Assembly (NCBI GenBank): GCA_030637365.1
Contig: DAOWGR010000088.1
Span: 1-33,467, forward strand
Direction: 5' to 3'
DNA length: 33,467 bases
DNA from: Elusimicrobiota bacterium
GTDB taxonomy: Bacteria; Elusimicrobiota; Elusimicrobia; Elusimicrobiales; UBA9959
Part shown: piece after piece, positions 3,930 to 23,508 of the stretch
Numbering within the stretch: position 1 is the stretch's first letter
How the letters are laid out: every line of letters begins with the position of its first letter
Made by a program: the position numbers and the translations under genes
Notes under the pieces: model-generated
The model's input: the letters and a program-made list of their open reading frames with translations, nothing else
What the model was told of the DNA's origin: nothing
Database searches by the model: none

Positions 3930-3958
3930 AGATTTGTAAGGATATTCCTTGCAAATTT
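3930..3958 (+). terminator. Hairpin between the Cache-like gene and the amylase gene (possible terminator or processing site)
   Basis: AGATTTGTAAGG-atatt-CCTTGCAAATTT: 12-bp stem with 5-nt loop; T-rich but not a clean U-tract downstream. Confidence 0.4.
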
Positions 3959-4076
3959 GATTTCTTACCTCTTTTTGTTATTCGTATTATTAGGTCTTGA
4001 TCTCAGTTTATATTGGGTCATAGGTTGCTTGCCAATTAGTGTATTGCTACTAATATATATAAATAGGATAGAGTTT

Positions 4077-6062
4077 ATGCGATATAAATTTTTTCAAAAT
4101 ATTCTGTTTTTTTGTCTTTTTTGCGGATTTTCAAATAACGCGTTTGCCATTAATGATTTGGAGTCCCGGCGAAGTGAAGCCTCCGTGGTTTTTGACGGCG
4201 GCGCGGCGGTTTTTGAAGATTTGTCCGGCTTCAAGTCGGATTTAAAATATTCCCAGCAAAATTATATTTCAGAGCTTCGCCAAGTAATGTCGGCGGGCCG
4301 TTGGAATGGCAGCACTCCCGCTATAAGGCATTTTCAATTTAAACACAGTGAAGAGGGGTGGAACGCGCAAGCTCAAAGTGTCGGTCTCGAAGGGTTTTTT
4401 TGGACAAAAAGGGAGCTTGAAAACAAATACGGCCCAGATAAGTTTATTCATCAGGTTGACGGTTATTTTACATATTTGGAGCATTTGCTTTCTCCCGTTG
4501 CATGGACAAAAGAATTCAGGGAGGACTTGGCCGAGCTTAAAAAGTCCGACCTTAATGTATATGAGAAAAATGACAAATTGAATCTTATTTTGGAGCGTTA
4601 TATTAAAGGGCTTCAGGAAAATATGGAGAAATATGACAGCGCGGGGTGGATTAAAAAAGCGAGGATTTATGAATTGTTTCCGCGCGCTTATAATACCGCC
4701 GGCAGACGAAACGCCGATGGGTTTAAGTCTCCTTCAAATTCCGATAAAACGCTGTTTTTTAAGGATTTCGCCATATCCGATTTTGATGTGATTAAAAGGA
4801 TGGGTTTTGATGTTGTGTGGCCCATGGGCATATTGCCGATAGGGAAAAGAGGACAGACCGGAACGGGCGGCGGTTCGCCTTATTCCATAAGCGATCATTC
4901 CACCGTTAATCCTGATTTGGGCACGGAAGAAGATTTTAAAAATTTTGTTAAAAAAGCGCATATGGCGGGTTTGAAAGTTATAATTGATTTTGTTGTTAAT
5001 CATACATCGCTTGATTCAAAGCTTTTGCATGAAGACCCGGATTATTTTATTAATTTTCGTTATGACGGAGCTTGTCCGAGAGACGGGTATTTTGAGCATT
5101 ATTGTAAAGGGCAAAAATATTGCGTGAATAACGGAGGTTTTGAGTATGGCGGAGGCGTGTCCACTTGGATTGACACCGCTCAGGTAAATTACGGCAATGA
5201 AAAACTCAGAGGCCGAATGACTCAAATACTCAAGGGTTGGGTGTCCAAATTTGATATTGACGGGTTCAGGGTTGATATGGCGCATCTTGATTTGAATAAT
5301 GTTTTTTCGCGAACATGGCAAAAAAGCATGCCGCATGAAGAATTTTACAGGCCGATGATAAGAGAAGTTAAGTCGGCAAAAGCTTCGGTCGCTTTTGTGG
5401 CGGAAGCCTATTCTTTTCAGGAAGATTTGTCGGCTTGCGGTTTTGACGCTATTTACAGCAAATATGAAATGGGCCGGCCCGAGGGCCAAACAGGCTGGTA
5501 TGAAACGAGCGCGAGCGGAAACAGCTATGAGATTGGGAGTTCCATAAACAGAGTGGCGTTTCTCGCGTGGCAAAACGGCGGCGCGGGATCGGTTGTTTTC
5601 GTGGGCAATCATGATGAGCCCGCTCCCGAGACGGTGTACGGCAAGAGGCTTCCGGCCGCTCTTATGATGACTATGCTGATGCCAAGTTCTATAATGGTTT
5701 ATTCGGGCGCTGAGATAGGATATAATGCCGCGATTGCCACGGAACATAAGCCATTGCCTTTTAGCGTGCCCACTGAAATTGATTGGAGCGAGGGCGAAGC
5801 TTGGGTTAAGGAAACTTACCTGAATGTATTTTCAATTTCAAATAAGATAAGAAATGAAATGGGCGATTATGATATTAAACCTCTCTGGCCGAAAGATGGC
5901 GGGCAATGGTCCGGCTATATGATGATATCCAAATCAAAGCCCGATTTGAAAAAAGCCGTTATAGGAAATATAACATGGAATTCCGCCGCGGTTTATCTTC
6001 CGGAATTTCAAATAAATCTGAATCTTGAGCCCGGCGAGTACAAAATAGTGAGCCTTAAGTAG
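4077..6062 (+). CDS. Secreted GH13 alpha-amylase family glycosidase
   Basis: Signal peptide MRYKFFQNILFFCLFCGFSNNAFA; four GH13 regions: DFVVNH, GFRVDMAH, FVAEAY, FVGNHDE. Start at 4077 chosen over 3957. Confidence 0.9.
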   Translation: MRYKFFQNILFFCLFCGFSNNAFAINDLESRRSEASVVFDGGAAVFEDLSGFKSDLKYSQQNYISELRQVMSAGRWNGSTPAIRHFQFKHSEEGWNAQAQSVGLEGFFWTKRELENKYGPDKFIHQVDGYFTYLEHLLSPVAWTKEFREDLAELKKSDLNVYEKNDKLNLILERYIKGLQENMEKYDSAGWIKKARIYELFPRAYNTAGRRNADGFKSPSNSDKTLFFKDFAISDFDVIKRMGFDVVWPMGILPIGKRGQTGTGGGSPYSISDHSTVNPDLGTEEDFKNFVKKAHMAGLKVIIDFVVNHTSLDSKLLHEDPDYFINFRYDGACPRDGYFEHYCKGQKYCVNNGGFEYGGGVSTWIDTAQVNYGNEKLRGRMTQILKGWVSKFDIDGFRVDMAHLDLNNVFSRTWQKSMPHEEFYRPMIREVKSAKASVAFVAEAYSFQEDLSACGFDAIYSKYEMGRPEGQTGWYETSASGNSYEIGSSINRVAFLAWQNGGAGSVVFVGNHDEPAPETVYGKRLPAALMMTMLMPSSIMVYSGAEIGYNAAIATEHKPLPFSVPTEIDWSEGEAWVKETYLNVFSISNKIRNEMGDYDIKPLWPKDGGQWSGYMMISKSKPDLKKAVIGNITWNSAAVYLPEFQINLNLEPGEYKIVSLK

Positions 6063-6136
6063 TTTTATTTGGCGGTATTTGGGGAAAAAGTAATTATTAT
6101 AGTTTTAAAGAAAATTTGCTAATCGCGATACGTGCC

Positions 6137-7642
6137 GTATTGGAGGTTGTTTTGCTTCGTTCAAATCCTCATTTAATAGAAATTAACGCGAGACTTTGGA
6201 TAAATCAGCTTAGGAAGAAATATTCGGAAGATATAACTCTTTCAACTATTCCCGAAGAAGAATTATTGAAAATTAAGCATTTGGGTTTTGACATAATTTG
6301 GCTTATGGGCGTATGGGGGCCAAGTCCCCAATCGGCTGAAATAGCCAAGAAAGAGCCGGAACTTATAAAAATCGCGAAAGAAATTATTCCTGAATTTAGT
6401 CCGGATAAAATAGGAGCGTCTCCTTATTCCATTTTTGAATATAAGCTCAATGAAGATTTGGGTTTTGAATGGGAAATTAAGGCGCTTAAAGAAAGATTAA
6501 ATTCTTTAGGCATTGGTTTGTTTCTTGATTTTGTTTCAAATCATATGGCAAAAGATAATCCTTTTATTAAAGAATGTCCCGAATGTTTTGTAAGCGCGAG
6601 CGCCGAAGATTACGCTGCGCGCCCCGATCAATTTTTTGTTTTTGAGACAAACGGCGAAAAAAAAAATATCGCTTACGGCAGAGACCCCAATTTCCCGCCA
6701 TGGACCGATACGGCTCAGCTTAATTTTTTTAATGCTCGCGCGAGAGAGAAGATGCTTCAATTTTTAATGGATATAGCCGATATGTCCGACGGCGTTCGCT
6801 GCGATATGGTGATGCTGACATTGAATGATATTTATGAAGGGACATGGGGCTGGCTTTTAAATAAAGAGGGGCTTCAAAAACCCGGCAATGAATTTTGGGC
6901 CCAAGCCATAAAAAAAGTTAAGCGGAAATATCCCAAATTTATTTTTATCGCGGAAGTTTATTGGGGGCTTGAATGGCGTTTCCAGAATATGGGTTTTGAT
7001 TATACCTATGATAAAATAATTTATGATCGTTTAAGAAACAGCGACTGTGATAATATCCGAGGGCATTTGAGAGCCGAAAAATTATATCAAAAGCGTTCGG
7101 TCAGATTTATAGACAATCATGATGAAGTGTCTTCAATTAAATCGTTCGGCAGGGAAAAGGCTTTCGCGGCGGCCGTTATAATGTCAACGATTAAAGGGCT
7201 TAGGTTTTATCAGGACGCGCAATTGGACGGAGAGATTGTTAAAGTGCCCGTGCAAGTCCTTGATTATGATTGTCCGGTGGATTTGGGCGCGAGAAAATTT
7301 TACGAGAAACTTCTTAAAATAGTTGATCATCCCGCCTTTCACGGCGGAGAATGGAATTTGCTTGAAGTTAATCGTTCCCATCCGGAAAATAAAAGCAATA
7401 TTAATATTTTAAGCTGGTCGTGGTCGCAGATGAGAACGGTTAAAATTGTAATTGTTAATTATTCCCAGGAGACTTCATCGGGAATAGTAAGAACCAAGAT
7501 TAAATCTTCCGAGGATAATACGGCATTGTTTGAAGAATTGTCCGGCAGATTCATTTCATTTAATTCAAGTGATATACAGGACGGTCTTAAAATGGAAAAT
7601 ATGCCGCCGTATTCGGCCTATATTCTGGATATGGAGTTCTGA
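6137..7642 (+). CDS. GH13 alpha-amylase family glycosidase, no obvious signal peptide
   Basis: DFVSNHM, GVRCDMVML, FIAEVYWG and FIDNHDE keep the Asp/Glu/Asp catalytic residues. Exact start (TTG, 6116 or 6137) is uncertain. Confidence 0.85.
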   Translation, partial: VLEVVLLRSNPHLIEINARLWINQLRKKYSEDITLSTIPEEELLKIKHLGFDIIWLMGVWGPSPQSAEIAKKEPELIKIAKEIIPEFSPDKIGASPYSIFEYKLNEDLGFEWEIKALKERLNSLGIGLFLDFVSNHMAKDNPFIKECPECFVSASAEDYAARPDQFFVFETNGEKKNIAYGRDPNFPPWTDTAQLNFFNARAREKMLQFLMDIADMSDGVRCDMVMLTLNDIYEGTWGWLLNKEGLQKPGNEFWAQAIKKVKRKYPKFIFIAEVYWGLEWRFQNMGFDYTYDKIIYDRLRNSDCDNIRGHLRAEKLYQKRSVRFIDNHDEVSSIKSFGREKAFAAAVIMSTIKGLRFYQDAQLDGEIVKVPVQVLDYDCPVDLGARKFYEKLLKIVDHPAFHGGEWNLLEVNRSHPENKSNINILSWSWSQMRTVKIVIVNYSQETSSGIVRTKIKSSEDNTALFEELSGRFISFNSSDIQDGLKMENMPPYSAYILDMEF

Positions 7643-7954: not shown

Positions 7955-8704
7955 TTAGACTTCTCTGGCGAGGGTAAACGCCGCCACTTTGCGCGCCCCG
8001 GCTTTTTTTAGCGTTTTCGCGAGTTCCTCAAGCGTGTTTCCCGTTGTGGCGACATCATCAATCAATATTATATTTTTTCCTTTTATGAGTTTTGGTTTCA
8101 AAGCGCTGAACGCTCCGGAAATATTGGTTTTTCTGGCCTCTTTATTTAAGGTTGCTTGAGGTTTGGTGTTTTTGACGCGGATAACGGCGTCTTTTATAAC
8201 TTCAAAATCTTTTTTTTCGGCTATGATATCGGCCAATAAGTCGCTTTGATTAAAACCTCTTTGAGCCAATTTTTTTCGCGCGAGCGGCACAGGCAATAAA
8301 AAACTGAAATCTTTAAATTCGGAATTTGTTTTTAATGTTTCTCTCATCCATAAGCCGAGTGTTTTTGAGAGATAAGGCTTGCAATTATATTTATATTCAT
8401 GAATAGCGGAACGCATGGGTTCATTGAAAATAAAGGCCGATCTTATAAAAGAGCATTTCGGCTTTATTTTCAGCTTTTTGCAGGGATAACAATGCATCTC
8501 TGAATCTATGGGTTTGCCGCATTTGGCGCAGAAAAAGCCGCTTATTTGTTTTAGCTGCCGGAGGCAAGCCAGGCATAAAATATTTTCATTTAAATGATGA
8601 ATATCATTTTTGCAATGCAGGCATATTCTGGGAAAAAGAATGTTTATGAAGAATTTCAAAAAATTTGAATGAAACACTTTGTTTGTAATTTTTTTTATAT
8701 TCAT
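7955..8704 (-). CDS. comF: ComF family phosphoribosyltransferase-like protein
   Basis: Two N-terminal CxxC zinc pairs (CLHC, CLAC, CAKC, CYPC) and PRTase motif NIILIDDVATTGNTLEE. Confidence 0.88.
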   Translation of the reverse strand: MNIKKITNKVFHSNFLKFFINILFPRICLHCKNDIHHLNENILCLACLRQLKQISGFFCAKCGKPIDSEMHCYPCKKLKIKPKCSFIRSAFIFNEPMRSAIHEYKYNCKPYLSKTLGLWMRETLKTNSEFKDFSFLLPVPLARKKLAQRGFNQSDLLADIIAEKKDFEVIKDAVIRVKNTKPQATLNKEARKTNISGAFSALKPKLIKGKNIILIDDVATTGNTLEELAKTLKKAGARKVAAFTLAREV

Positions 8705-8752
8705 CGCGCTTGTTTGCAATGCTGTTTCGTATTTATTCTATTTCTTGCTTCT

Positions 8753-8827: not shown

Positions 8828-11800
8828 TTAGAATTGAAATGTGACTGAGCTTCCGATTTGATATGAAAAATATTCCTCTTGTTTAAGGTGTTTATGCCAT
8901 AGTCTTTGAACAGAGGCGTTTAACGCGATTCTAAGATTTTTTGTGGCTTCATAATCGCTGTTTGTATTTAAAGAAAATAATCTTGAATTTTCGGCTATGG
9001 TGATGGGGGATTTTTTGATGGCATAGCTTAATGTGGTGGTCCAAACTATTCTATTGGTAAAAGCCACAATATTTTTCATAAAAGGCAATCTGAGCCCTTT
9101 GGGAATTTTAAAGTCCGAACGCATAAGCAAGCTTGGCGTTAAGGACATGCTGTCTTGAGTGGCGACTCCCAATCCGCTTTCGGTAAAATCCGAAGTATAA
9201 TCCACTTTAGGCGTAAATCTGAATTTGTTTATATCAAATGTTCCCTGAATGGTGGCGTCATTATGTCTGGTATTGCTTACTTTTTGGTTTATGCGCAGAT
9301 CTTTTTTTTCGGAAAGCCGCAAATTATAGCTTATGGCCGCGTCTAAAAAGTCGAAAAATTTAAATCTTAAATCCGTTCCGTAACTGGAGCTTTGTTCAAT
9401 ATCCACCGCTATGTTTTCTTTCGTGTTTTTTGAAAATTTAAAATTTAATGTCGCGTTTTTTGCCCATTTTTCCGTTTTTGTCAGTATTTCAAGCTTGCTC
9501 ATGGAAAACAATATGTCCGGAAAAGTTCTGCTTATGGTTTTGCTTTTGGTTTGGGTTATTTCGGAGCGCTGCACGGTATTTGTAAAATTATTGGTCAAAG
9601 ATATGGTTGAAAAAGGCGCGTATCGCCCTTTTAAGTTATAACCTTCAAACGGCTGCCATCTCTGTGTTGAATTATAAGTGTCTCTTACGGTCAGAGAGTT
9701 TTGCTGAGCTACTGAATTTTCAGGTTTCAGGTCGCGCCTTATCCAGAGATCCTTTTTGGAGTTGTAGCTTTTTTCCACATAGTCCCATGAATCTCCGTCT
9801 TGCAATTGATAATTGGAGGAAATTACCATGGACCTCAAAAGCCTGTTTCGCGGCATTAATTTATTCATATTGAGCGATAGGCTTAGAGCTCCTTGAGAGG
9901 TTCTTCTTATTGTTTTAATTTCACCGGTATCAAATGTGGTGGATGATTGAAGAACGGTTACCGTGGTTACGGACAGATTATTGTTTTCCATCGTGTTAAT
10001 GGAATAATTAAGGCTGGGATTCAGCCAATCAAAAAATCTAAAATTTGAATTAAACCCTGCTGTTTGCTGAAGAGATTTGGGATATTTTAAAGAATTCGCG
10101 GTATTTGATAAATTGAAACGGTCTTCTTTTACTTTTTTTAAATCGTAAGAGGGATTAAATGAAGATCCTTTCCACGGAATAAATGTAAGTTTCGCGCCGT
10201 AATTTCGGCTCACTTCATCAGTATTATAAAGATTTGACAAATCACTTAATTTAGCCGCGTTGTAATTTACTTGGGTTTCATTGATGCCGTAGTTTAAAAC
10301 AACGGTTCTTGGAATTATAAAAAAGTTGAAAGGCGCGCTATAGTTTAAACTGCCGGAATAGGCGTTGTTTTCATCATGCCTTTTAGCCAGATCATATTCC
10401 GTTTTATTTCGCGAATAATTGAGGCCTATTTGCGGAAGTTTGCCAAAGTTGAAATTGCCGCTCGCCGATGTGTTCTGTTTTTTCACCTTTCCCTGCTGAA
10501 GTGAATTAACAAGGTTGTTATTTCCCGTTATAAGTGTATTGGGGGTATCTGTTATTTGATTTGAAACATTTACATTTATCGGGAAAAAACGAAGTTTGGT
10601 AAAGTTTAAATAGCCCGTATTAAGTTCATTATCCTGATTTGAAATGGCTGAAACCGGAGTCTGGAAATTTTTATCCACAAGCCTGTGTTTTCCGCCGAAA
10701 CTCATCCATCCGGGAATATCAAAATTTCCTTCAATTTTTTTCGCGGTTCCCGTTTTTTTCAAAGGTACAGCCAAGTGTATTTCATTAATATAAACCGTTC
10801 CGCTGTAAGTATTTGAATCCGCCGTTTCAATACCCACGGATATCATTGGCACCTGTTGGAGGCTTAAGAGCCCTTTGGATGATACGCTTATATCATAATT
10901 TGATTCGTTTTCGCTCCAAACATCGGGTATATTGTCGCCGTTTATATCTTCCTGCTTAAGCGTAATAAGCCGCCAGCCAGTGAAAGAGTTTAAAGATACG
11001 GAAACCTTTTGATAATTATTATCATCTCCGAGTTTAAGATAAAAATTCGTGTTGGAGGTCGCGCTGCTGTATAAAAGAAACTTAAATTCCTCGTGTTGGG
11101 CGATATTAATCGCTCTGGCGTATTTTCGGTAAACATAAACGGTTGATGAGGAGGATATATTTGAATAATTGAATGAAAGAGACTGTTCTATCAGATTTTC
11201 GGAATTTGTTTCTTTTTGCTGCTTGGCCGCCGAGCCGTAAAGGTCGTTGTAAACAGCGGTGGCGTCTCCTCCCGCGTCATATATGGGCGTATAGCCCGGA
11301 TTATCAACATTGTTTACGGCCAAAACTTCCATAGTTCCGCTATGCGTGCTTTGGCTTATGTTCCAGGTATTGCCCACGACTGATATTCTGGCTATTTTAA
11401 TTGTGCCGGTGGAAGTTCCGCCGGGCGTTTGTTTTAATGATATTCGGATTTGTTTTATGGCATTCCATTTGTATGTGTCGCTTGATGTTATATGGAGAGA
11501 TGTGTAAAGAGTATGCCAGCCGCTAAAATCTATATTGTTTTTTGTATTTAGACTGTCATCATTGTCTATAAAAAGCGAACTGTTGACATAACCGAAGTCT
11601 CCGCCGGTATAATCTTGGGGATCCAGGCGGCCGTTCCTGTTTAAGTCCGCGGAATCCAGGCGGCCGTTATCTTCGCCATAGCGCTTCCAATGGTCATCGT
11701 GCGGCTTGTAAAGCCAGCCTATATCTTCATCATTTGAAAGTTGTCCGTCGCAATTTAAATCTTCGCTTTTGGGCGCGCCGTGAATATCTATTCCGTTTGA

Positions 11801-14236
11801 ACAGTTAAAAGACTGTCCGCTTTTTCCGTCCGCGTCTTCGCTGATTTGGCCGAGATGAAAATTTATTTGAGGGCCGGGAATTCCAATTGAGTTTTCTCCG
11901 TAAGCTACAAATTCAAAAGTGTTTTTTTGAGAAAAATCAAGGCCCGTATTGGAAAAAGGATACACTATTGATATTTCCGGCGATATGTTGAAATCATAAT
12001 TAACGGTCAATACCTGCTGGTCTCCCTCGCTTGTTGACGCGGAATTTATTGTTTTGGATTTAATATCTTCGCTTGCCCACGCTAAAGCCGAGGGATACGC
12101 GGGATTTTCCGTCGGGTTTGCGGCTATATGCCAGAAATTATGGTCCAAAGAAGGAGTGTCGTCCTGTTTAACGCCTTCCATATTGTCTATAAGAGCGAAA
12201 TCATTCAGATTGGGTTTGACTATTGATTGGGCGGCTTCCGCCTGTAAATTGGCTTTGATGCCGAGCAGATTCAGATTTTTCAGCTGCGCGTCCCCTTCAT
12301 AAACAAGCATGCTGTTTGTTAAATCGGTTATGTTCGGCACGGTATTTGTTTTCATGCCGCCCTGATACAGCAGAGAACTGCCGAATGATAAATGGGAGCT
12401 TAAATCATAAGAAACTCTTCCGCCGATAAGTGAAAGACTGCCTGCGCCTCCGAAAGGAGCGACTTCATAAGTAATGGTAATGGCGCTGTCCGATTTTATT
12501 TTGTCGGGATGATAAAAAGTTATGAATCCCGAATCATAATCTATAAAATAAGATTCATTGCGCCTGAGTTTTACTTTGTCAATTGTCACGAAATCCGAAT
12601 GGGTGACAATATTGGGCTCAAGCATAAATGTTTTAAAACGATGATAATATTCCACTCTTATCAGGCGTTTTGACACGGGCGAAGGCGCGTAAATCTGCGT
12701 GTCGGGCTCGGTGGAATTATCAAGCGTGAATTGTTTGTCAAGATAAAATATGCCTTGTTCAAAATCCACATGAATGGTTTCGGGGTAAGTTTGTTGGGGC
12801 GATAAGCCGCTTCCCACATTATTCCTGGTTAAGTCCTGAACTTTTAATGAAAAACTGCCTCTGCCGTCGTCGCGGACAATATTCATCTGCCCTATGGAAT
12901 AATAGGTTTTTAACTCTCTTTGCCAGCCAGTCTCCGAATTGTTGTTTATGTAAATATCGTTTTGCGTTTTTATAAGTTTGAAATTTCCGCTTCCGCCCGA
13001 GCCGGTATTCGCCGATGACGGATTTTCCGAAAGTTTGAATCCGCTTGAATTTTTAAAATCAATGATTATCACTTCCTGCGAATCTAAAGCTCTGTTAAAA
13101 GTCAGTATGCCTTTGATATAGTCGATATTATAATCCAAGCCGGGATTTAATCGTTCAAATTTGCCGGTATAGGTGGAAGTCTGGACATCAAGGTCATCGG
13201 CTGTCATATTAAAAATCGTTATGCCGTCGGCGACGGCTTGCTGTTGCTTGTCTATATAAATTGCTTCGCTGTTTGGCTCCAAAGGAAGGCGCGCCGGATT
13301 TCCGAAAGTTAAATCATAATATTTTCTTCTCAGATAGCTTATATCGGAAATGTCCGTGGCTTGAAATTGCGTATTGCCCGTGAATTGTTTTGTTTTTGTC
13401 TGGCCTTTCGTGCGGCTGCCTATGAAAGTAAAACTGAATTTTTTGGTTTTTAAATCCGCTCTTATTCCAAAGAGCTGCTTATTATACGATACGAATTCGG
13501 TTGAGGGCAGAGACAGGTTAATATCGCCGAAAGCGATGTTTTGCACCACTTCTTGGGGGTCTCCTCTATATACCACGGAAATATCCTGTCTGTCTTCTTT
13601 TGTGTCGTCATAGTCCACATTCACATTTATTTTATTTCCGACTTTGCCCTGCATGCGCACCTGAAGCTGTTGATTGATTTCAAAAAGGCCGGATGATTTC
13701 GGGCGGGTAACGGTTTTTTGCTCATTTAAATATTTTTTTCCGGAATAATTGAAGCTTATTATTTTTCTTCCGGTAACCGATAAAGAGGTTCCATAAGATG
13801 TAAATTCCACTTCCGGCGCGGGAAGCGCGGGAATATTTGTTGAGATCGCCACATAAATCGGCGCCGGCGCAATAGCTTTTTCAAATTGTCCGGTTTCAAT
13901 TTTTTCACGGACTTTATTCCATGAGCTTGGAGAATAATTTGAAATCGGCAATTCTTCAAAAATTATTTCAGGGTCGGCTTGAGGAGTCGTGGATTTTTTT
14001 ATTTCAGTTTTTAAAATGGCGGCCGAATCCGGCCTTTCAAGAAGCATGAATCTTGAAGACGGCTCCGGCGTTGGAGCTATGTAATCTTCGCTTTGGCCGT
14101 CTGATGGACATAGCCCATTGTTACGGCATCCGACATAGTCTTGAGAATACGCTCGCGCGCTTGCGAGGTTCAATAATATTAAAAATATATATATCAATTT
14201 ATACATTAATTTATATTTAACAGACCCATCATTCAA
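8828..14236 (-). CDS. SprA/Sov-like giant outer-membrane beta-barrel protein (T9SS translocon family homologue)
   Basis: N-terminal signal peptide. SprA_N-like pattern FEINQQLQVRMQGKVGNKINVNVDYDDT...YRGDPQEVVQNIAFGDINLSLPS...QLFGIRADLKTKKFSFTFIGSRTKGQTK; GLDYNIDYIKGILTF; LIDNMEGVKQDD; Asp-rich EF-like motifs; long beta-strand-rich C-terminus ending in Phe. Start could also be the internal Met at 14206. Confidence 0.75.
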   Translation of the reverse strand: MNDGSVKYKLMYKLIYIFLILLNLASARAYSQDYVGCRNNGLCPSDGQSEDYIAPTPEPSSRFMLLERPDSAAILKTEIKKSTTPQADPEIIFEELPISNYSPSSWNKVREKIETGQFEKAIAPAPIYVAISTNIPALPAPEVEFTSYGTSLSVTGRKIISFNYSGKKYLNEQKTVTRPKSSGLFEINQQLQVRMQGKVGNKINVNVDYDDTKEDRQDISVVYRGDPQEVVQNIAFGDINLSLPSTEFVSYNKQLFGIRADLKTKKFSFTFIGSRTKGQTKTKQFTGNTQFQATDISDISYLRRKYYDLTFGNPARLPLEPNSEAIYIDKQQQAVADGITIFNMTADDLDVQTSTYTGKFERLNPGLDYNIDYIKGILTFNRALDSQEVIIIDFKNSSGFKLSENPSSANTGSGGSGNFKLIKTQNDIYINNNSETGWQRELKTYYSIGQMNIVRDDGRGSFSLKVQDLTRNNVGSGLSPQQTYPETIHVDFEQGIFYLDKQFTLDNSTEPDTQIYAPSPVSKRLIRVEYYHRFKTFMLEPNIVTHSDFVTIDKVKLRRNESYFIDYDSGFITFYHPDKIKSDSAITITYEVAPFGGAGSLSLIGGRVSYDLSSHLSFGSSLLYQGGMKTNTVPNITDLTNSMLVYEGDAQLKNLNLLGIKANLQAEAAQSIVKPNLNDFALIDNMEGVKQDDTPSLDHNFWHIAANPTENPAYPSALAWASEDIKSKTINSASTSEGDQQVLTVNYDFNISPEISIVYPFSNTGLDFSQKNTFEFVAYGENSIGIPGPQINFHLGQISEDADGKSGQSFNCSNGIDIHGAPKSEDLNCDGQLSNDEDIGWLYKPHDDHWKRYGEDNGRLDSADLNRNGRLDPQDYTGGDFGYVNSSLFIDNDDSLNTKNNIDFSGWHTLYTSLHITSSDTYKWNAIKQIRISLKQTPGGTSTGTIKIARISVVGNTWNISQSTHSGTMEVLAVNNVDNPGYTPIYDAGGDATAVYNDLYGSAAKQQKETNSENLIEQSLSFNYSNISSSSTVYVYRKYARAINIAQHEEFKFLLYSSATSNTNFYLKLGDDNNYQKVSVSLNSFTGWRLITLKQEDINGDNIPDVWSENESNYDISVSSKGLLSLQQVPMISVGIETADSNTYSGTVYINEIHLAVPLKKTGTAKKIEGNFDIPGWMSFGGKHRLVDKNFQTPVSAISNQDNELNTGYLNFTKLRFFPINVNVSNQITDTPNTLITGNNNLVNSLQQGKVKKQNTSASGNFNFGKLPQIGLNYSRNKTEYDLAKRHDENNAYSGSLNYSAPFNFFIIPRTVVLNYGINETQVNYNAAKLSDLSNLYNTDEVSRNYGAKLTFIPWKGSSFNPSYDLKKVKEDRFNLSNTANSLKYPKSLQQTAGFNSNFRFFDWLNPSLNYSINTMENNNLSVTTVTVLQSSTTFDTGEIKTIRRTSQGALSLSLNMNKLMPRNRLLRSMVISSNYQLQDGDSWDYVEKSYNSKKDLWIRRDLKPENSVAQQNSLTVRDTYNSTQRWQPFEGYNLKGRYAPFSTISLTNNFTNTVQRSEITQTKSKTISRTFPDILFSMSKLEILTKTEKWAKNATLNFKFSKNTKENIAVDIEQSSSYGTDLRFKFFDFLDAAISYNLRLSEKKDLRINQKVSNTRHNDATIQGTFDINKFRFTPKVDYTSDFTESGLGVATQDSMSLTPSLLMRSDFKIPKGLRLPFMKNIVAFTNRIVWTTTLSYAIKKSPITIAENSRLFSLNTNSDYEATKNLRIALNASVQRLWHKHLKQEEYFSYQIGSSVTFQF
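11621..11668. repeat. 15-bp direct repeat ATCCAGGCGGCCGTT encoding NGRLD in the calcium-binding-like segment
   Basis: Copies at 11621-11635 and 11654-11668, 33 bp (11 codons) apart. Confidence 0.7.
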
Positions 14237-14264: not shown

Positions 14265-15380
14265 ATGCGAATTCCTATCTTTCAGAGGTATATTTTAAAG
14301 GTTTTCATTCCTTTTTTTCTGCTTTCAACCTTTCTTTTTACCGCTTTGTTCATGATGGTTAACTTTATGCAGATTATTCATCGCGGCATATTAAGCGGTT
14401 TTTCATTTTATTTTCTTTTTAAAACGCTTGTTTTTCTCATTCCAAATATTTTCTCCATGGTGCTGCCGCTGGCGTTTTTAATGGCCACTTTGCTGAGTTT
14501 GGGGCAATTATCCGGCGATGGGGAAATTATGGCCATGCGCGCGGGAGGGTATTCATTTAAAGAAATTTTGACATCTCTTTTAGCGAGTTCTCTTGTTGTC
14601 GTTTTTTTGCTTGTTTTTATAACTAATTGGTTCGGACCGCTATCTCTCAAAAAATCCAATGATTATGTTCTGGCGATGGTAAATAAAATCACCAAATTGG
14701 AGCTGCGCGCCCAAACATTTCAGAAAATATCGGATTGGGAGATATATTCGGACGAGGTTGATAATAAGGCGCAAAAGCTTTTAAATGTTAAATTATCCAG
14801 AACATTTAAAAAATCCGATAATAATTCTTTATGGTTGTTAAAAATTGACGCGAAAGAAGGCAGTTATAGGATTATTAAAGAAAAGGGCTTATTGATGAAA
14901 TTTGGAAACGGCAGGTTTAATCAGGTTGATTTTAAGAATAATGAAACGCTGGTGCACGGAACTTTTAAAGCCTATGAAACGCTTATTCCTTTTTTTTCAA
15001 AAAGCACTTTGAACAGAAAACTTTATCCAAAAGAAATGCAAAGTTTTGAGCTTCTTGATAAGATTAAAGCCAATGCCTTAAGTCAAAGCATGCTTATGAA
15101 ATACAAGGTTGATTTTATCACAAGATTCACAATGGTTTTGTCTCCCGTCATATTTTTTTTAATAGGCGCGCCTCTGGGGCTTTTGCTTGAAAAAAAAGGG
15201 AAGGCGATGGGTTTTTCTTTAACTTTATTGATAATTTTCATTTATTACGGCATTAGCGTAATATCCATGGCGCTCGCGAAAAAACACGGAATATTTTTTC
15301 CTTGGATATTATATGTTCCTCCTATTTTGGGTTTCGCGGCGGGAGCTTATATTTGGAGGGCGAAGCTGTATTTAAAGTAG
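14265..15380 (+). CDS. LptF/LptG (YjgP/YjgQ) family LPS export permease, first copy
   Basis: Six-TM YjgP/YjgQ layout; MVLPLAFLMATLLSLGQLSGDGEIMAMRAGGYSFKEIL; C-terminal PLGLLLEKKGKAMGFSLTL. Confidence 0.9.
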   Translation: MRIPIFQRYILKVFIPFFLLSTFLFTALFMMVNFMQIIHRGILSGFSFYFLFKTLVFLIPNIFSMVLPLAFLMATLLSLGQLSGDGEIMAMRAGGYSFKEILTSLLASSLVVVFLLVFITNWFGPLSLKKSNDYVLAMVNKITKLELRAQTFQKISDWEIYSDEVDNKAQKLLNVKLSRTFKKSDNNSLWLLKIDAKEGSYRIIKEKGLLMKFGNGRFNQVDFKNNETLVHGTFKAYETLIPFFSKSTLNRKLYPKEMQSFELLDKIKANALSQSMLMKYKVDFITRFTMVLSPVIFFLIGAPLGLLLEKKGKAMGFSLTLLIIFIYYGISVISMALAKKHGIFFPWILYVPPILGFAAGAYIWRAKLYLK

Positions 15381-15650: not shown

Positions 15651-16736
15651 ATGAGCAAAATTTTTCCAAAATATATAGCGGCGTCTTTTTTTGGGCCTTT
15701 TTTCTTCGGCCTTGGAATATTTACCGCTTTGATTTTTTTTGGCACGCTTTTTGATAAATTGAACATATTCATGCGCGCGGGATCAAACTTAAGTTTATTT
15801 GTGAAATATCTTTTATGCCAATTGCCATATTACGCGGCGCAGGTTATTCCCATGGCAACGCTTTTGGCTGTTTTATTCGCGCTTGGAGACTTTATCAAAA
15901 GGGGAGAATGGAAGGCCGGGCAAGCCGGCGGGTACAGGCCGCTAACCATGATAATGCCGCTTTTGCTTTGTTCTTTGATAGTGGCTGTTTTTCATTTCGC
16001 GCTTATAGAATTTGTTTCTCCCGTTTTATACATGAAATCCCAAAGGATTTATCATTCAGAGTTAAAGGGAAAAAAAGACTGGGGAAATATGGCGCGCAAA
16101 AATGTGTCTTTTTTTGCCGGTGAAGGAACTTTTATTTCAGCCAATGTTTTTAACGGTAAAACCCGGAGTATGGAAAAAGCTGTGGTTGATATTTATAAAG
16201 ACGGAGAGATGTCTGTTGAAATATCGGCGAAAAGAGCGTATTGGGACAAAGAAAGCGCGAGGTGGATATTTTTAAACGGAGCGCTTACAAAATATGATGA
16301 TGACAGGCCTTTGACCAAAAGCTTTGATGTGTATAAATCGGAATTTTTAATTCATCCTGAAAAACTGGTTTTCAAGGAGCTTGTAGCGGATGGAATTTCA
16401 ATAAGAAAACTTTTAAATAGAATTGATAAACTGCGCTTTATCGGTTCCAGTATTATAGCTGAAAAAACTCTTCTTTATTATAAGCTGGCTTTTACTCTTT
16501 CAAATTTTGTCATGGCCATGATAGGCATTGTGGTTATACTTTTCTTTAACAGAGTAAATAATATGTTCAATATCGGTATTGCCATTTCGTTGGGATTTCT
16601 TTTATGGGCTTTTATGACAATTTCTTCATCAGCCGGAGTGTCTGAAGTTCTTTCGCCGGTTTGGGCCGGGTTCGGGCCGCTTGTGTTGTTTTTTCTGATA
16701 GCTCTGTTCGGAATGAGAAAAGCGAAAATAATATAA
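15651..16736 (+). CDS. LptF/LptG (YjgP/YjgQ) family LPS export permease, second copy
   Basis: PYYAAQVIPMATLLAVLFALGDFIKRGEWKAGQAGGYRPLTMIMP; RBS AGGAGAAT before ATG. Confidence 0.9.
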   Translation: MSKIFPKYIAASFFGPFFFGLGIFTALIFFGTLFDKLNIFMRAGSNLSLFVKYLLCQLPYYAAQVIPMATLLAVLFALGDFIKRGEWKAGQAGGYRPLTMIMPLLLCSLIVAVFHFALIEFVSPVLYMKSQRIYHSELKGKKDWGNMARKNVSFFAGEGTFISANVFNGKTRSMEKAVVDIYKDGEMSVEISAKRAYWDKESARWIFLNGALTKYDDDRPLTKSFDVYKSEFLIHPEKLVFKELVADGISIRKLLNRIDKLRFIGSSIIAEKTLLYYKLAFTLSNFVMAMIGIVVILFFNRVNNMFNIGIAISLGFLLWAFMTISSSAGVSEVLSPVWAGFGPLVLFFLIALFGMRKAKII

Positions 16737-18122: not shown

Positions 18123-18962
18123 ATGGCAAATGTTAAAGACATATTTATAAGAATATTGAAAATATTTAGTAGCGCCATCGGCAAATTCTTAAAAATTAAC
18201 GGTTCTCAAAGAGCCGCGGCTTTCGCTTACGCGGCATTCTTTTCTTTTTTTCCATTGATGATTATTCTTGTTACCTTGGCGTCGGTTTTTATTGATCATA
18301 ATATGGCTGCCAACGCGATTATTGAATATATTAAAAAATATATTCCGCTCAGCGGTTCAATGCAGAGTTATATTTTTAGCGCTATGGCGGGCGTGGTCAA
18401 AATTCGCATTCAGGCCGGTTCGCTCATGTTTATTATGTTGGTTTGGATTTCCATACAATTTTTTATTACTTTAATATCAGCGGCTAATCAGGCTTGGGGG
18501 ATTAAGCATCATAATTGGTGGCATAGTCCGTTAAAAAGCGTAATTCTTTTCGGTTTTATGGCGGGAGCTATGTTTTTGGGCATGGCTTTGCCCATGCTAA
18601 TGCGTATGATTAAGGTTTGGCTTTTTCCAACGAGCACATTTATTTCTTGGGTATATCCCGTGGGATTATTTTTTATTCCGTGGCTGATAATGTTCTTAGG
18701 GCTTGGTTTTTTTTATAAGTTCGCGCCGAGGCGGCGCACGAGTATTCAAGAGGTATGGGCCGGAGCTTTGATTTCCACAATCTTTTTGCAAGCGGGGGGG
18801 AATTTGTTTGTATTGTATCTTAAGAATTTTTCTTCGCTGAATGTGGTTTATGGCGCGTTTGGCGGCATAATGGCCCTGCTGTTATGGATTCATCTTTCCG
18901 GGTGTATTATTATTTTTGGAGCTTGTTTCTGCGCCGCGCGGGCGCAAATTAACAATACTTAA
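18123..18962 (+). CDS. YihY/virulence factor BrkB family membrane protein
   Basis: AAAFAYAAFFSFFPLMIILVT, FKFAPRRRTSIQEVWAGALISTIFLQAGG, VYGAFGGIMALLLWIHLSGCIIIFGA. Confidence 0.88.
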   Translation: MANVKDIFIRILKIFSSAIGKFLKINGSQRAAAFAYAAFFSFFPLMIILVTLASVFIDHNMAANAIIEYIKKYIPLSGSMQSYIFSAMAGVVKIRIQAGSLMFIMLVWISIQFFITLISAANQAWGIKHHNWWHSPLKSVILFGFMAGAMFLGMALPMLMRMIKVWLFPTSTFISWVYPVGLFFIPWLIMFLGLGFFYKFAPRRRTSIQEVWAGALISTIFLQAGGNLFVLYLKNFSSLNVVYGAFGGIMALLLWIHLSGCIIIFGACFCAARAQINNT

Positions 18963-20095
18963 GATTTACGCCTGTCGGAGCGCTCGCGCGTAGCGGGGCG
19001 CGCCACTCCGTTTTCATCAAAAATATGCAGTTTGTCAATGGCAAAAACCAATTTAATCCGGTCGCCGGTTTTAATGGGGAAGTCATGCCTTTGATTGGAT
19101 TGAAACTCAAGTCCTTGAGCTTTGCAATGAAGGGACACATCATTGCCCATGGATTCCGCGAGCTCAATTTCACAATCAATAGCCTCGCTACACAACATGT
19201 CGTTAGGCTTTCTTTCAGCTAAATATATATGTTCGGGCCTTATCCCCAAAGTATAATCGGAACTTTCATCGCTTAAAATATCGGGAAATTTCAAAGGAAG
19301 CGTAAGTGCCGTATTGTTTATCTTAAAAAACAATTGGTCATCCTTTTTTATAATATCGCCCTTAAAAAGATTCATCGGCGGGCTTCCGATAAAAGTGGCT
19401 ACGAATACATTTTTCGGCGAAGAATAAATTTCAGACGGCGCGCCGCATTGCTGAATAATACCGTTGTGAAGCACCACCATTCTGTCGGCCATGGTCATGG
19501 CTTCGCATTGGTCATGAGTTACATAGATTATCGTAGTTTTCAGTTTTTTGTGAAGTTTTGATATTTCAACCCTCATTTGGGTTCTCATTTTGGCGTCCAA
19601 GTTTGACAAGGGTTCGTCAAATAAAAAAACTTTCGGTCTTCTGACTATCGCTCTTCCGACGGCTACGCGCTGTCTTTGTCCGCCGCTTAAATTCTTAGGT
19701 GTTTTGCGCAGAAAATCTTTAATGCCCAGAAGTTCAGCGGCATCATTCACGCGTTTGTCAATTTCTTTTTTATCCGTTTTTCTTATGCTTAAGCCAAAGC
19801 TGATATTTTCATAGACATCCAAATGCGGAAACAGGGCATAGTTTTGAAAAACCATTGAGATGCTTCTGTCTTTCGGCGGAAGGTTTGTGATGTCTTTACC
19901 GTCAATAAACATTTTGCCGCTTGTCGTATTTATCAAGCCCGCGATCATTCTTAGGAGAGTTGATTTGCCGCAGCCGGACGGGCCTACAAAGACCATAAAT
20001 TCACCGGCATTGATTGAAAGATCCAAATCCTTAATTGTGGATTTATCATTATTGGGATAATGTTTTACCACATTTTCTAAAATAACACTTGCCAT
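18959..20095 (-). CDS. Carbohydrate ABC transporter ATP-binding protein (MalK/UgpC-like)
   Basis: Walker A GPSGCGKST, signature LSGGQRQRVAVGRA, Walker B VFLFDEP, C-terminal TOBE-like region; RBS AGGAGAA before ATG at 20095. Confidence 0.93.
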   Translation of the reverse strand: MASVILENVVKHYPNNDKSTIKDLDLSINAGEFMVFVGPSGCGKSTLLRMIAGLINTTSGKMFIDGKDITNLPPKDRSISMVFQNYALFPHLDVYENISFGLSIRKTDKKEIDKRVNDAAELLGIKDFLRKTPKNLSGGQRQRVAVGRAIVRRPKVFLFDEPLSNLDAKMRTQMRVEISKLHKKLKTTIIYVTHDQCEAMTMADRMVVLHNGIIQQCGAPSEIYSSPKNVFVATFIGSPPMNLFKGDIIKKDDQLFFKINNTALTLPLKFPDILSDESSDYTLGIRPEHIYLAERKPNDMLCSEAIDCEIELAESMGNDVSLHCKAQGLEFQSNQRHDFPIKTGDRIKLVFAIDKLHIFDENGVARPATRERSDRRKS

Positions 20096-20193
20096 ATCAG
20101 TTCTCCTAAATACGCAAAATACTCGCAAAACGCGCTGATAAATATATTCCTGAATTTGCGAACAAAGGTGACATATAATTCCTTCTAATCTTG

Positions 20194-20293
20194 CATCTTA
20201 TTTACATATCTACGCCGTTTATCTTCTGTCCGTATTAACTTATCATCTTATTTACATATCTACGCTGTTTATCTTTTGTCCATATCAACTTAT
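20194..20293. repeat. Two tandem copies of a 50-bp unit
   Basis: CATCTTATTTACATATCTACGCYGTTTATCTTYTGTCCRTATYAACTTAT at 20194-20243 and 20244-20293, about 4 substitutions. Confidence 0.85.
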
Positions 20294-20310
20294 AAACTTG
20301 CTTTTATCTT

Positions 20311-21120
20311 CTATCCTTTTATTCCCGAAGACGCAATGCCTTCTATAAAATATTTCTGAAAGAACACATACGCGATAACCAATGGAATCACCAAAAACAT
20401 TGAGGCCGCCATTTGTATTCCAAGATCTCCTCCCGCCTGTCCTCCCACCGCGAACATTGTTATCATTTGCGGCATTGTCATCATGGTTTGTTCTCTTATA
20501 ATCATCATCGGCCAGAGAACCTCATTCCATGTTCCCATAAATGTTATTATTCCCACCGTTACCATCGCGGGTTTTGAAAGCGGCCAAAAAATCTTAGTCA
20601 AAATTTGCAATTCTCCCGCTCCTTCTATTCTCGCCGCTTCCATCAGATCGCCCGGTATGCTTACAAAGGTCTGACGGAAAATAAGAATTCCCATGCCGCT
20701 TATCATCCACGGAACTATAAGGCCGGGATAAGAATCCACCCATCCGAGTTTAACGATAAGGGTATATAAGGGAATCAGAGTCAATTGGCCGGGAATCATC
20801 ATTGTAAACAGAACTATCATAAAAAGAGTTTCTCTGCCAGTGAATTTGAGCTTCGCGAGAGCGTAGCCGACAAGAGAACTGAAAAAAATAACCGATGCGG
20901 TGGTGGCTCCGGCCACAATAGTACTGTTTAAAAGAGCGCGGCCTATCGGAATTTTTTTAAAAACCGCTATATAATTATGGAATGTGAAATTGGAAGACAA
21001 AAGATTCATGGAAGTAGCTTCAGCGACAGGTTTTAAAGAAGCCGAGGCCATCCATAAAAACGGATAAATGAAACTCACAGCCGCGAAAAGCAATATAAGA
21101 TGAAGAATAAGTTTTTTCAT
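20311..21120 (-). CDS. Carbohydrate ABC transporter permease (MalG-like)
   Basis: Multi-TM; EAA loop DLMEAARIEGAGELQILTKIFWPLSKPAMVTVGI. Confidence 0.92.
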   Translation of the reverse strand: MKKLILHLILLFAAVSFIYPFLWMASASLKPVAEATSMNLLSSNFTFHNYIAVFKKIPIGRALLNSTIVAGATTASVIFFSSLVGYALAKLKFTGRETLFMIVLFTMMIPGQLTLIPLYTLIVKLGWVDSYPGLIVPWMISGMGILIFRQTFVSIPGDLMEAARIEGAGELQILTKIFWPLSKPAMVTVGIITFMGTWNEVLWPMMIIREQTMMTMPQMITMFAVGGQAGGDLGIQMAASMFLVIPLVIAYVFFQKYFIEGIASSGIKG

Positions 21121-21292
21121 TGTATTTCCTGTTTTAGTAAATGCTAAATTATAATCATCTATCCTTTAATTTGGCGAATTACCATTTTATCATTCGCTAT
21201 TTCCGTTTCTGTCTTTTTGCCTCTGTTTTTTCCATGGCAAAGCTTTGCTTTGCGGCTACCTTTCATAATTGCTTTTGTGCTTTTTCTTGTTT

Positions 21293-21324
21293 CTTTCTGC
21301 CATACTGCCGCGCTGTTGCCTGTC
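21293..21324. repeat. Octamer short tandem repeat, 4 units, same family as 7644-7691 on the opposite strand
   Basis: CTTTCTGC CATACTGC CGCGCTGT TGCCTGTC; the 14-mer CAACAGCGCGGCAG is shared with 7650-7663. Confidence 0.65.
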
Positions 21325-21332
21325 GCGCTTAT

Positions 21333-22208
21333 TTAATACTCCGTTTCTTTGCCGAGATATTTTTTCTGCACAAGAACAACCATAAGTATTACAATCGCCA
21401 GAGCAAAACCGATGGTGGCGGCATAGCCCATATGCTGAAACAAGAAAGCGTGTTTGTACATATAAAGCACAACCGACATGGTTTTATCCAGAGGTCCGCC
21501 GCCCGTCATTACATAAGGCTCAATAAAAAGACTGAATGCTCCGAAAGTGGAAAGAACAACCACTAAAAGCATGGTTGGCCGCAAAAGCGGAAGCGTTATG
21601 CGCCAAAAATCCTGCCATCTGCTCGCCCCTTCAATCCGGGATACTTCATAGAGATGACCCGGAATACTAAGCAAGCCGCCAAGAAAAAGGATTATATAAA
21701 AACCCATATTCTTCCAGGTCGCCATGATGGCGATTGCTGGCATGGCGATTTTTGTGCTGGTAAGCCAGCCGACCGGAGATATGCCGATTAAACTCAGAAG
21801 ATGATTAAAAATTCCGGTGTCGGTCGCGTAAAGTTTTTGCCATAAAATTGTTACAACCGCGCCCGAGATTATCACCGGCAAGAAAAAGGCCGCGCGAAAA
21901 AATGTTCTCGCGAATATTTTTTCCGCCAGCACCATGGCTATTATTATTGAAAAAAATATTTGCAGAGGAATATGAATCAAAAGAAAAACGAGCGTGTTTA
22001 AAAGAGCCTGCCAGAATTGCGTGTCATGCAGAAGGAAAATGAAATTATCCAAACCGACAAAGGCGGGAGAAGTCAATAAATCCCATCTGTGAAATATCAG
22101 ATAAAATGAAAAGACTAAAGGATACGCCGTAAAGGCGAGCAAGAAAATTATATACGGAGATATAAAAGCGTAGCCTATGTTTTCGTTTTTTTCTTTACCA
22201 ATAGTCAT
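21333..22208 (-). CDS. Carbohydrate ABC transporter permease (MalF-like)
   Basis: Multi-TM; EAA loop HLYEVSRIEGASRWQDFWRITLPLLRPTMLLV. Confidence 0.92.
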   Translation of the reverse strand: MTIGKEKNENIGYAFISPYIIFLLAFTAYPLVFSFYLIFHRWDLLTSPAFVGLDNFIFLLHDTQFWQALLNTLVFLLIHIPLQIFFSIIIAMVLAEKIFARTFFRAAFFLPVIISGAVVTILWQKLYATDTGIFNHLLSLIGISPVGWLTSTKIAMPAIAIMATWKNMGFYIILFLGGLLSIPGHLYEVSRIEGASRWQDFWRITLPLLRPTMLLVVVLSTFGAFSLFIEPYVMTGGGPLDKTMSVVLYMYKHAFLFQHMGYAATIGFALAIVILMVVLVQKKYLGKETEY

Positions 22209-23451
22209 ATATATTCTGCACATTTTCCGCGGCCATTTTCATTGATTTTTCAGGGCTTATCACTCTGTAAATGGCGGCGGCTTCAAATTGTCTTGAGATT
22301 ATATCCAAAATCTGTATGAGATGCGGCGAGTCGTCCATAGGCACGACGAAATCCGCCTGCCGCGCCGCCTTTTTTAAAAGAGGATTTTTTTTAAAAAAGC
22401 TTTTAAAATACGCGTCATCGGCAATATGGGCTCGCGTCGGAATTTGGCTTGTCAGTTCAAGAAGTTTTAAATCCGCTTTTTTACTTATTAAAAATTTAAT
22501 GAATTTCCATGCTTCGTCGGGATGTTTTGTCGTTGAAAATATCACCATGTTTTTGGGATCGCCATAAGTGTAAACGGGGCCTTTATGATTGTCGGGAACG
22601 GGAATAGGCGCGAAATCAAACTTAAGATTTGGATTAAGCCTCTTATAATATTCTATTATCCATGGCCCCACCATGCTCATTGCCGTCTTGCCGTCAACAA
22701 AAGTATCTCTGGAGAATCCGAGCATTGGAAAATACCGATTTTTAAAACCATCCGCGAAAAATTTCATCGCGGCAATGGCGCCGTCATTATTGAAAATGGC
22801 CTTATCGCCTTCAAGCAGAGTTTTACCGCCCGTTGCCGCCACATAAAACGGATAAAAATCAAAAAGCCTTTGATACCAAACGGTTTTTATGGATACTTTC
22901 ATCGCCCAATGGTCAAGTATGCCGTTTCCGTCTTCATCACTGTTAATGGATTTGGCGACATTAATAAATTCGCTGTAGGTTTTCGGAGGTTTCAATTTGA
23001 GAGATTTAAATATTTCCGTATTATAGGCCAGCATAACCGGATTGGATTTCCACGGGATTTGACAAAGCTTGCCGTTATTTGAGCGAAATTTATCCGTGAG
23101 TTTCGTTCCCGTCCTGTCTACAATAACCTTTTCACTGTCTTTAAATCTGTCCAGACAAACAACCGCTTTTGACTCTATGAATTTTCCCATTATCGCGGGA
23201 AGAATATTGGAGCATATATCGGGAGTGGTTTTTGACATTATTGCCGAAAGAAGTATTTCCTCGCTTGAGCCCGTGGCGGGAATCGGCTGCACTTTTACAT
23301 GAATATCGGGATGAAGCTCATTCCACTCATTTACCAGAATTTTCGCAAGTTTAATTTCTTCGGTATTTGAAGACGACCAATACAAAAGCTCAACCGCCTG
23401 ACAATTGCAAGCCGAAAATAAAAGAAATATTGTAAAAAGGTTTGAAAGCAT
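22195..23451 (-). CDS. Extracellular solute-binding protein, sugar family 1
   Basis: Signal sequence with Cys, then ELLYWSSSNTEEIKLAKILVNEWNELHPDIHVKVQPIPATGSSEEILLSAIMSKTTPDI; overlaps the permease start. Confidence 0.9.
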   Translation of the reverse strand: MLSNLFTIFLLFSACNCQAVELLYWSSSNTEEIKLAKILVNEWNELHPDIHVKVQPIPATGSSEEILLSAIMSKTTPDICSNILPAIMGKFIESKAVVCLDRFKDSEKVIVDRTGTKLTDKFRSNNGKLCQIPWKSNPVMLAYNTEIFKSLKLKPPKTYSEFINVAKSINSDEDGNGILDHWAMKVSIKTVWYQRLFDFYPFYVAATGGKTLLEGDKAIFNNDGAIAAMKFFADGFKNRYFPMLGFSRDTFVDGKTAMSMVGPWIIEYYKRLNPNLKFDFAPIPVPDNHKGPVYTYGDPKNMVIFSTTKHPDEAWKFIKFLISKKADLKLLELTSQIPTRAHIADDAYFKSFFKKNPLLKKAARQADFVVPMDDSPHLIQILDIISRQFEAAAIYRVISPEKSMKMAAENVQNIYDYW

Positions 23452-23508
23452 TCTTAGTATAGTATAATAAATCTCTATTATATATAAAGCGTTTCGGAGG
23501 AAATTTGA

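What the first reader, a model, noticed from the sequence alone, without database searches (positions are those of the whole stretch)
8828..14236. SprA/Sov-like type 9 secretion translocon homologue divergently paired with lptF/lptG
The 1802-codon protein has a signal peptide, an SprA-like N-terminal repeat pattern (GNKINVNVDYDDT...YRGDPQEVVQNIAFGDINLSLPS...QLFGIRADLK), an IDNMEG motif and a beta-rich C-terminus ending in Phe. SprA/Sov is the outer-membrane channel of the Bacteroidota T9SS and is usually about 2300-2500 aa; this one is about 25% shorter. It sits head-to-head, 28 bp apart, with two LPS-export permease genes, not with por/gld genes. This could be a T9SS-like exporter in another lineage, or a SprA-family barrel repurposed for envelope biogenesis.
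Basis: partly seen in the sequence, partly recalled or inferred. Interest (0 to 1): 0.78.

Follow-up and report, generated by a model that had tools for sequence, protein, structure and literature searches.

The report
SprA-like secretion channel of Elusimicrobiota
An uncultured Elusimicrobiota bacterium, like nearly its whole phylum, carries a relative of SprA, the giant outer-membrane channel of the Bacteroidota type 9 secretion system, together with many PorV-like carrier proteins that are mostly encoded right behind their own signal-tagged surface protein; this suggests a type-9-like export system outside the phyla where it is known, with the usual motor genes not detected.

Summary
ORF 8828-14236(-) encodes a distant but clear SprA homologue (TIGR04189 E=2.6e-30, below the equivalog cut-off; its family profile hits SprA 6h3i at E=1.7e-19). 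AlphaFold models of both halves have SprA as top PDB match (E about 1e-32; next barrels 4e-6 or weaker). The organism belongs to Elusimicrobiota; the gene is found in 139 of 151 genomes across the phylum. The best reading is a T9SS-like translocon. The same genomes hold PorV-family genes (typically 9-34 in the window's family) and T9SS-type C-terminal sorting domains, and CTD proteins usually sit directly 5' of a PorV gene (28 of 30 in PorV-rich loci; 12 of 19 in CTD-picked loci). All 7 PorV-less genomes also lack SprA. GldL, GldM and C25/PorU were not detected (no positive control rang). The lptF/lptG neighbourhood is conserved (67 of 85 loci) but explains less. So: T9SS-like, with type-A-like CTDs on apparently dedicated PorV carriers; not filed as canonical T9SS. 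In passing: PorV genes head a conserved MotA/MotB + FliF-FliG-fusion locus in genomes without FlhA, some with giant CTD proteins, a candidate new surface motor. Function is inferred throughout.

The parts
8828..14236 (-). SprA-family outer-membrane translocon homologue (1802 aa from TTG; likely ATG start at 14206, 1792 aa)
   Evidence: TIGR04189 E=2.6e-30; profile A1 vs PDB SprA E=1.7e-19; AlphaFold halves match SprA 8gl8 at E=1.2e-32 and 1.5e-32
8831..10852 (-). C-terminal barrel part (about residues 1129-1802): about 30 long antiparallel strands, ending in Phe
   Evidence: AlphaFold2 mean pLDDT 86 for residues 690-1802, DSSP strand list
13310..13813 (-). Best-conserved SprA N-terminal region (residues 142-309), with DYDD, FGDI.LSLP and KQLFG motifs
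   Evidence: best TIGR04189 stretch 142-309; invariant columns in alignment A1
14265..15380 (+). lptF, LPS-export permease, divergent neighbour
   Evidence: PF03739 E=9.9e-61, TIGR04407 best; lptF/lptG neighbourhood kept in 67 of 85 SprA loci
15651..16736 (+). lptG, LPS-export permease
   Evidence: PF03739 E=8.6e-60, TIGR04408 best
7955..8719 (-). ComFC-like phosphoribosyltransferase, co-directional neighbour downstream of the SprA-like gene
   Evidence: PF18912 + PF00156; downstream of SprA in 63 of 79 loci

Best explanation
The protein is the outer-membrane translocon of a T9SS-like export system that is ancestral to Elusimicrobiota. Proposed mechanism, by analogy with F. johnsoniae (PMC10994853): a surface protein crosses the inner membrane by Sec; its C-terminal Ig-like sorting domain enters the SprA-like barrel from the periplasm; a PorV-family barrel docked at the lateral gate binds that domain and carries the cargo out. 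Unlike Bacteroidota, where one PorV serves all type A cargo (PMC12618676), most cargo genes here have their own PorV gene directly downstream, so carriers appear dedicated. Shown here: homology and fold of the channel, presence and number of PorV-family genes, presence of CTDs, gene pairing, joint absence in 7 genomes. Inferred: transport itself, the lateral-gate mechanism, carrier specificity. Unknown: the energy source, since GldL and GldM were not detected.
For: Channel: TIGR04189 E=2.6e-30, 15 of 15 family members match; profile vs 6h3i E=1.7e-19; both AlphaFold halves match SprA first at 1.2e-32 and 1.5e-32, other barrels at 4e-6 or weaker. Core gene: 60 of 61 relatives, 53 of 53 high-quality; 139 of 151 phylum genomes. 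Carriers: NF033709 PorV family in 61 of 61 relatives, up to 34 per genome, 144 of 151 in the phylum. Cargo: PF18962 hits over the Pfam cut-off in 32 of 61 genomes; TIGR04183 over its cut-off in two cargo proteins. Pairing: 28 of 30 CTD C-termini lie directly 5' of a PorV gene; 12 of 19 loci picked by CTD alone have PorV within 140 bp downstream. CTD and PorV of 40 pairs co-diverge, Mantel r=0.875, 0 of 5000 permutations. Every PorV-less genome (7) lacks SprA, Fisher p=2.6e-9.
Against: No direct evidence of secretion. TIGR04189 and PorV/PorQ equivalog cut-offs are not reached. Five SprA-less genomes still have PorV-family hits, and all losses are in one family, so the Fisher test overstates independence. 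In the gut family f2 CTD hits are rare although SprA and 2-6 PorV hits remain. The 28 of 30 count comes largely from loci fetched by PorV. Co-divergence of neighbours partly reflects joint inheritance (r falls to 0.39 among distant pairs). No PorV enrichment near the SprA gene itself was found.
Confidence: 0.8

Rival explanations
1. It is simply a complete, canonical T9SS whose GldK/L/M/N and PorU components have diverged beyond the profiles used here; nothing about its energetics is different. (A narrower form of the best explanation, not exclusive with it.)
For: GldM, GldL and C25 searches found nothing above cut-off, but no control genome rang for them, so their sensitivity in this phylum is unknown. 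One weak GldL-like hit exists, E=2e-4, in G006. GldK, GldN, SprE, PPI, Plug were not searched.
Against: SprA, PorV and CTD models from the same curated libraries were all found in the same genomes, so divergence would have to spare those three. Carrier-cargo pairing already differs from the Bacteroidota type A scheme.
Confidence: 0.3
2. A SprA-family barrel repurposed for envelope biogenesis, working with LptF/LptG, for example in LPS or lipoprotein delivery.
For: lptF/lptG lie upstream of SprA in 67 of 85 loci, 64 divergently and 3 co-directionally, across two families of the order and some deeper branches. SprA persists in f2 genomes with few CTDs. LptD barrels appear far down the fold list.
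Against: Adjacency is absent in 18 of 85 loci, many of them deeper branches, while PorV and SprA co-occur phylum-wide. comFC is about equally conserved as a neighbour (63 of 79) without an evident functional link. The fold match to SprA exceeds that to LptD by over 25 orders of magnitude. LPS attachment of T9SS cargo would explain the neighbourhood equally well.
Confidence: 0.08
3. The gene was recently acquired from Bacteroidota.
For: SprA-based T9SS is otherwise reported from Bacteroidetes or the FCB group (PMC4793230, PMC11205867).
Against: Present in 139 of 151 genomes of the phylum with identity falling with taxonomic distance; only remote similarity to Bacteroidota SprA (12-14% in structural alignment); conserved local synteny.
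Confidence: 0.03

Closest known systems
[quoted passage not shown] PMC10994853)
   Same: Same fold family over both halves, detectable sequence homology over residues about 142-1157, signal peptide, C-terminal Phe, PorV-family and CTD proteins in the same genomes.
   Different: 25% shorter, about 12-14% identity, no Pfam SprA_N hit, below the TIGR04189 cut-off, no por/gld neighbours, in a phylum from which no T9SS was reported in the library searched.
PorV (type A cargo carrier) of Bacteroidota T9SS
   Same: Members of NCBIfam PorV/PorQ family NF033709, many above its cut-off.
   Different: Typically 9-34 copies per genome in the window's family rather than one PorV for all type A cargo (PMC12618676); adjacent to cargo; some with TPR or other C-terminal extensions.
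Type B CTD / PorP-SprF cognate carrier pairs (PMC12618676, PMC9143113)
   Same: Cargo gene followed directly by its own carrier gene; some cargo giant, like SprB.
   Different: Carriers are PorV/PorQ family, not PorP/SprF; CTDs score mostly as type A (PF18962/TIGR04183), some as CHU_C.
GldLM and MotAB-type rotary motors
   Same: PorV-headed loci in many f1 genomes carry MotA, MotB and a FliF_C-FliG_M-FliG_C fusion.
   Different: No FlhA in 59 of 61 genomes, so no flagellar export apparatus; a link to the SprA-like channel is only through PorV/CTD genes, and is not shown.

Membership tests
SprA/Sov (TIGR04189) | Score above the equivalog cut-off (200 bits) | tested here: not met
   104.5 bits, E=2.6e-30; 15 of 15 family members match significantly. 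Homologue, not filed as equivalog.
SprA/Sov | Pfam SprA_N domain PF14349 | tested here: not met
   No match in hmmscan nor in the genome search
SprA/Sov | SprA fold: very large outer-membrane beta barrel | tested here: met
   Both halves match SprA first, E about 1e-32; about 40 long strands over the two part models
SprA/Sov | Exactly 36 strands and a lateral gate that binds PorV | not testable with these tools
   Protein longer than the folding limit; folded in two pieces, no complex prediction
Type 9 secretion system | PorV/PorQ-family carrier | tested here: met
   NF033709 over cut-off in 40 of 61, any hit in 61 of 61 relatives
Type 9 secretion system | Cargo with C-terminal sorting domain | tested here: met
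   PF18962 over cut-off in 32 of 61 genomes; TIGR04183 over cut-off in L051 and L052 cargo
Type 9 secretion system | GldL/GldM (PorL/PorM) motor | tested here: inconclusive
   GldM 0 of 61, GldL 0 of 61 over cut-off; no control genome rang, so sensitivity is unproven
Type 9 secretion system | GldK/GldN ring, SprE, PPI, Plug, SkpA | not tested
Type 9 secretion system | PorU-type C25 sortase (type A surface attachment) | tested here: inconclusive
   PF01364 0 of 61; no control rang

The most novel reading that the evidence does not exclude
In Elusimicrobiota a SprA/PorV/CTD export system exists without the GldLM motor, and in many genomes its PorV carriers and giant CTD proteins are coupled to a flagellar-type rotor-stator (MotA, MotB and a FliF-FliG fusion) in cells that have no flagellum: a new surface-motility or secretion machine assembled from T9SS and flagellar parts.
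Probability: 0.25. Interest if true: 0.93.

Novelty: new variant of a known kind. Interest (0 to 1): 0.76.

Why it matters
T9SS is described as confined to Bacteroidetes (PMC4793230) or the FCB superphylum (PMC11205867), and the library searched held no paper on one in Elusimicrobiota. A phylum-wide SprA-like translocon with expanded, cargo-linked PorV carriers would extend the system's range, give natural variants for working out what PorV recognises, and allow a direct test of whether the GldLM motor is essential to SprA-type export or a lineage-specific add-on.

Tried and rejected
Single-sequence phmmer against the PDB found nothing; only the family profile reached SprA. Pfam SprA_N was silent. 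Viral contigs gave no relative. PorV genes within the SprA neighbourhoods (L057, L080, L082, L085, L095) were considered as linkage, but five among about 98 loci is no more than PorV copy number predicts by rough estimate, so I do not claim it. Greedy ORF calling in GC-rich loci hid lptF, so neighbour counts were redone with tblastn. A literature search with 'SprA' returned 'Sprague' papers. Recent transfer from Bacteroidota and a purely LPS-related role were considered and set aside for the reasons given under rivals.

Full report
What is there. The minus-strand ORF at 8828-14236 is real and open for 1802 codons from a TTG. An ATG at 14206, directly before a hydrophobic signal sequence, is a likelier start. 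lptF and lptG follow divergently, and a ComFC-like gene lies downstream on the same strand. The window is contig C178 of a 1.5-Mb, 79% complete assembly; its relatives in the named genome collection are Elusimicrobiota, several labelled Elusimicrobiales.

Identity. The protein matches NCBIfam TIGR04189 (Sov/SprA) at E=2.6e-30, 104.5 bits against a cut-off of 200, and all 15 members of a diverse family alignment match the same model. Pfam SprA_N does not match. A profile of the family hits F. johnsoniae SprA in the PDB at E=1.7e-19, aligning profile stretches 142-284, 521-600 and 979-1157 with SprA 148-293, 701-780 and 1316-1542. The offsets show that the 25% shortening is spread along the protein rather than one lost domain.

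Fold. The protein exceeds the folding limit, so residues 130-1000 and 690-1802 were modelled separately with 43-sequence alignments. Mean pLDDT is 77 and 86. The C-terminal piece ends in about 30 long antiparallel strands. Against the PDB, SprA entries are the top four matches of both pieces (1.2e-32 and 1.5e-32 for the best); the next barrels are TonB-dependent receptors and LptD, at 4e-6 or weaker. The exact number of barrel strands cannot be read from two part models.

Distribution. The gene is present in 60 of 61 relatives and in all 53 high-quality ones, usually as one full-length copy, and in 139 of 151 genomes sampled across the phylum. This is a core gene of Elusimicrobiota, not an accessory one. 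The genomes without it all belong to one family (f10), mostly one genus (g29) with 0.6-1.4-Mb genomes; I infer but did not verify that these are Endomicrobium-type symbionts.

Partners. PorV-family genes (NF033709) occur in 61 of 61 relatives: 5-34 hits per genome in the window's family (12 in this incomplete genome; the 5 is a 60% complete one) and 2-6 in the second family f2. T9SS C-terminal sorting domains (PF18962) occur in 46 of 61 relatives at E<=0.1 and above the Pfam cut-off in 32. Cargo examples score with TIGR04183, CHU_C or FlgD-like Ig models. In loci in hand, 28 of 30 CTD-type C-termini among 9094 ORF ends screened lie directly 5' of a PorV gene. As those loci were mostly fetched by PorV, I took 19 loci picked by CTD alone: 12 have a PorV gene within 140 bp downstream; of the seven without, three are short f2 proteins and four are large proteins of similar tail. 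CTD and PorV sequences of 40 pairs co-diverge (Mantel r=0.875, 0 of 5000 permutations; r=0.39 for distant pairs only), as expected of pairs inherited, and possibly selected, together.

Joint absence. Of 151 phylum genomes, 139 have both SprA and PorV, 7 have neither, 5 have PorV only, none has SprA only (Fisher p=2.6e-9). The losses are clustered in one family, so the p-value overstates the number of independent events.

What was not found. GldM, GldL above cut-off and C25/PorU were absent from 61 genomes, but none of the 14 control genomes rang for them, so these negatives are inconclusive. GldK, GldN, SprE, PPI, Plug and SkpA were not searched.

Neighbourhood. lptF/lptG lie upstream of SprA in 67 of 85 loci with enough sequence, 64 divergent and 3 co-directional, and comFC lies downstream in 63 of 79. 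Conserved order of unrelated housekeeping genes is a weak functional argument. If cargo is anchored to LPS, as type A cargo is in Porphyromonas (PMC9143113), the proximity could still matter.

Mechanism. By analogy with the substrate-trapped F. johnsoniae structures (PMC10994853), the CTD of a Sec-exported protein would bind PorV loops inside the SprA pore and leave with PorV through the lateral gate. In F. johnsoniae all type A CTDs use one PorV, and only type B CTDs have cognate downstream PorP/SprF carriers (PMC12618676). Here the cognate arrangement is seen with PorV-family carriers. The steps shown are homology, fold, gene content and gene order; transport and carrier specificity are inferred.

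A second machine noticed. In G000 contig C49 a PorV-TPR fusion heads a locus with a histidine kinase, MotA, a FliF_C-FliG_M-FliG_C fusion, a coiled-coil protein, MotB and a response regulator. All 17 such loci examined keep PorV near the FliF-FliG fusion, and 14 keep MotA and 14 MotB by tblastn; some of these loci were chosen because a CTD or PorV lay on the same contig, nine were chosen by the fusion protein alone. In several the preceding gene encodes a giant protein with a CTD. FlhA is absent from 59 of 61 genomes, with controls ringing, so these are not ordinary flagella. The f2 genomes have SprA but no such locus, so this motor cannot be a general requirement of the SprA system; a surface-adhesin or gliding motor is the more likely use. 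This is a lead, not a demonstrated link.

Verdict. A T9SS-like translocon of Elusimicrobiota: membership in the SprA fold family is well supported, membership in the canonical T9SS is not established because motor, ring and sortase were not found or not tested.

Noticed in passing
L050 (G000:C49), L198-L213: Conserved locus PorV(-TPR) / histidine kinase / MotA / FliF-FliG fusion / coiled coil / MotB in Elusimicrobiota without FlhA; some copies follow a giant CTD protein. Candidate non-flagellar rotary motor tied to T9SS-type parts.
   Followed up: partly
L214, L215, L216, L217: In family f2, PorV genes lie beside what looks like a Tad/Flp-pilus gene set (L214, L216, L217, by eye only), or after a large putative cargo (1403 aa in L214, 1191 aa with CTD in L215).
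   Followed up: no
L219, L228, L234 (G049, G050): A few f2 genomes carry short proteins whose CTDs resemble Bacteroidota type A tails and lack a PorV neighbour; possibly acquired from gut Bacteroidota.
   Followed up: no
L222, L232, L235, L236: Large CTD proteins (several of about 1540 aa) without an adjacent PorV in several f1 genomes, an 'orphan' cargo class.
   Followed up: no
G009:C20, G012:C22, G016:C67: CTD-bearing open frames of about 5500-7000 codons, comparable in size to the gliding adhesin SprB.
   Followed up: no
L244 (G006:C4:13286-13672): Single weak GldL-like hit, E=2e-4, below cut-off.
   Followed up: no
window 18962-24495: Sugar-type ABC transporter genes next to a GH130 mannoside phosphorylase; two amylase-family proteins at 3957-7642.
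   Followed up: no
G072, G132, G160 (family f10): Genomes with degraded or partial SprA matches (E=3e-10, 4e-11; stops inside in G160) also have only weak PorV hits, as if the system is decaying.
   Followed up: no
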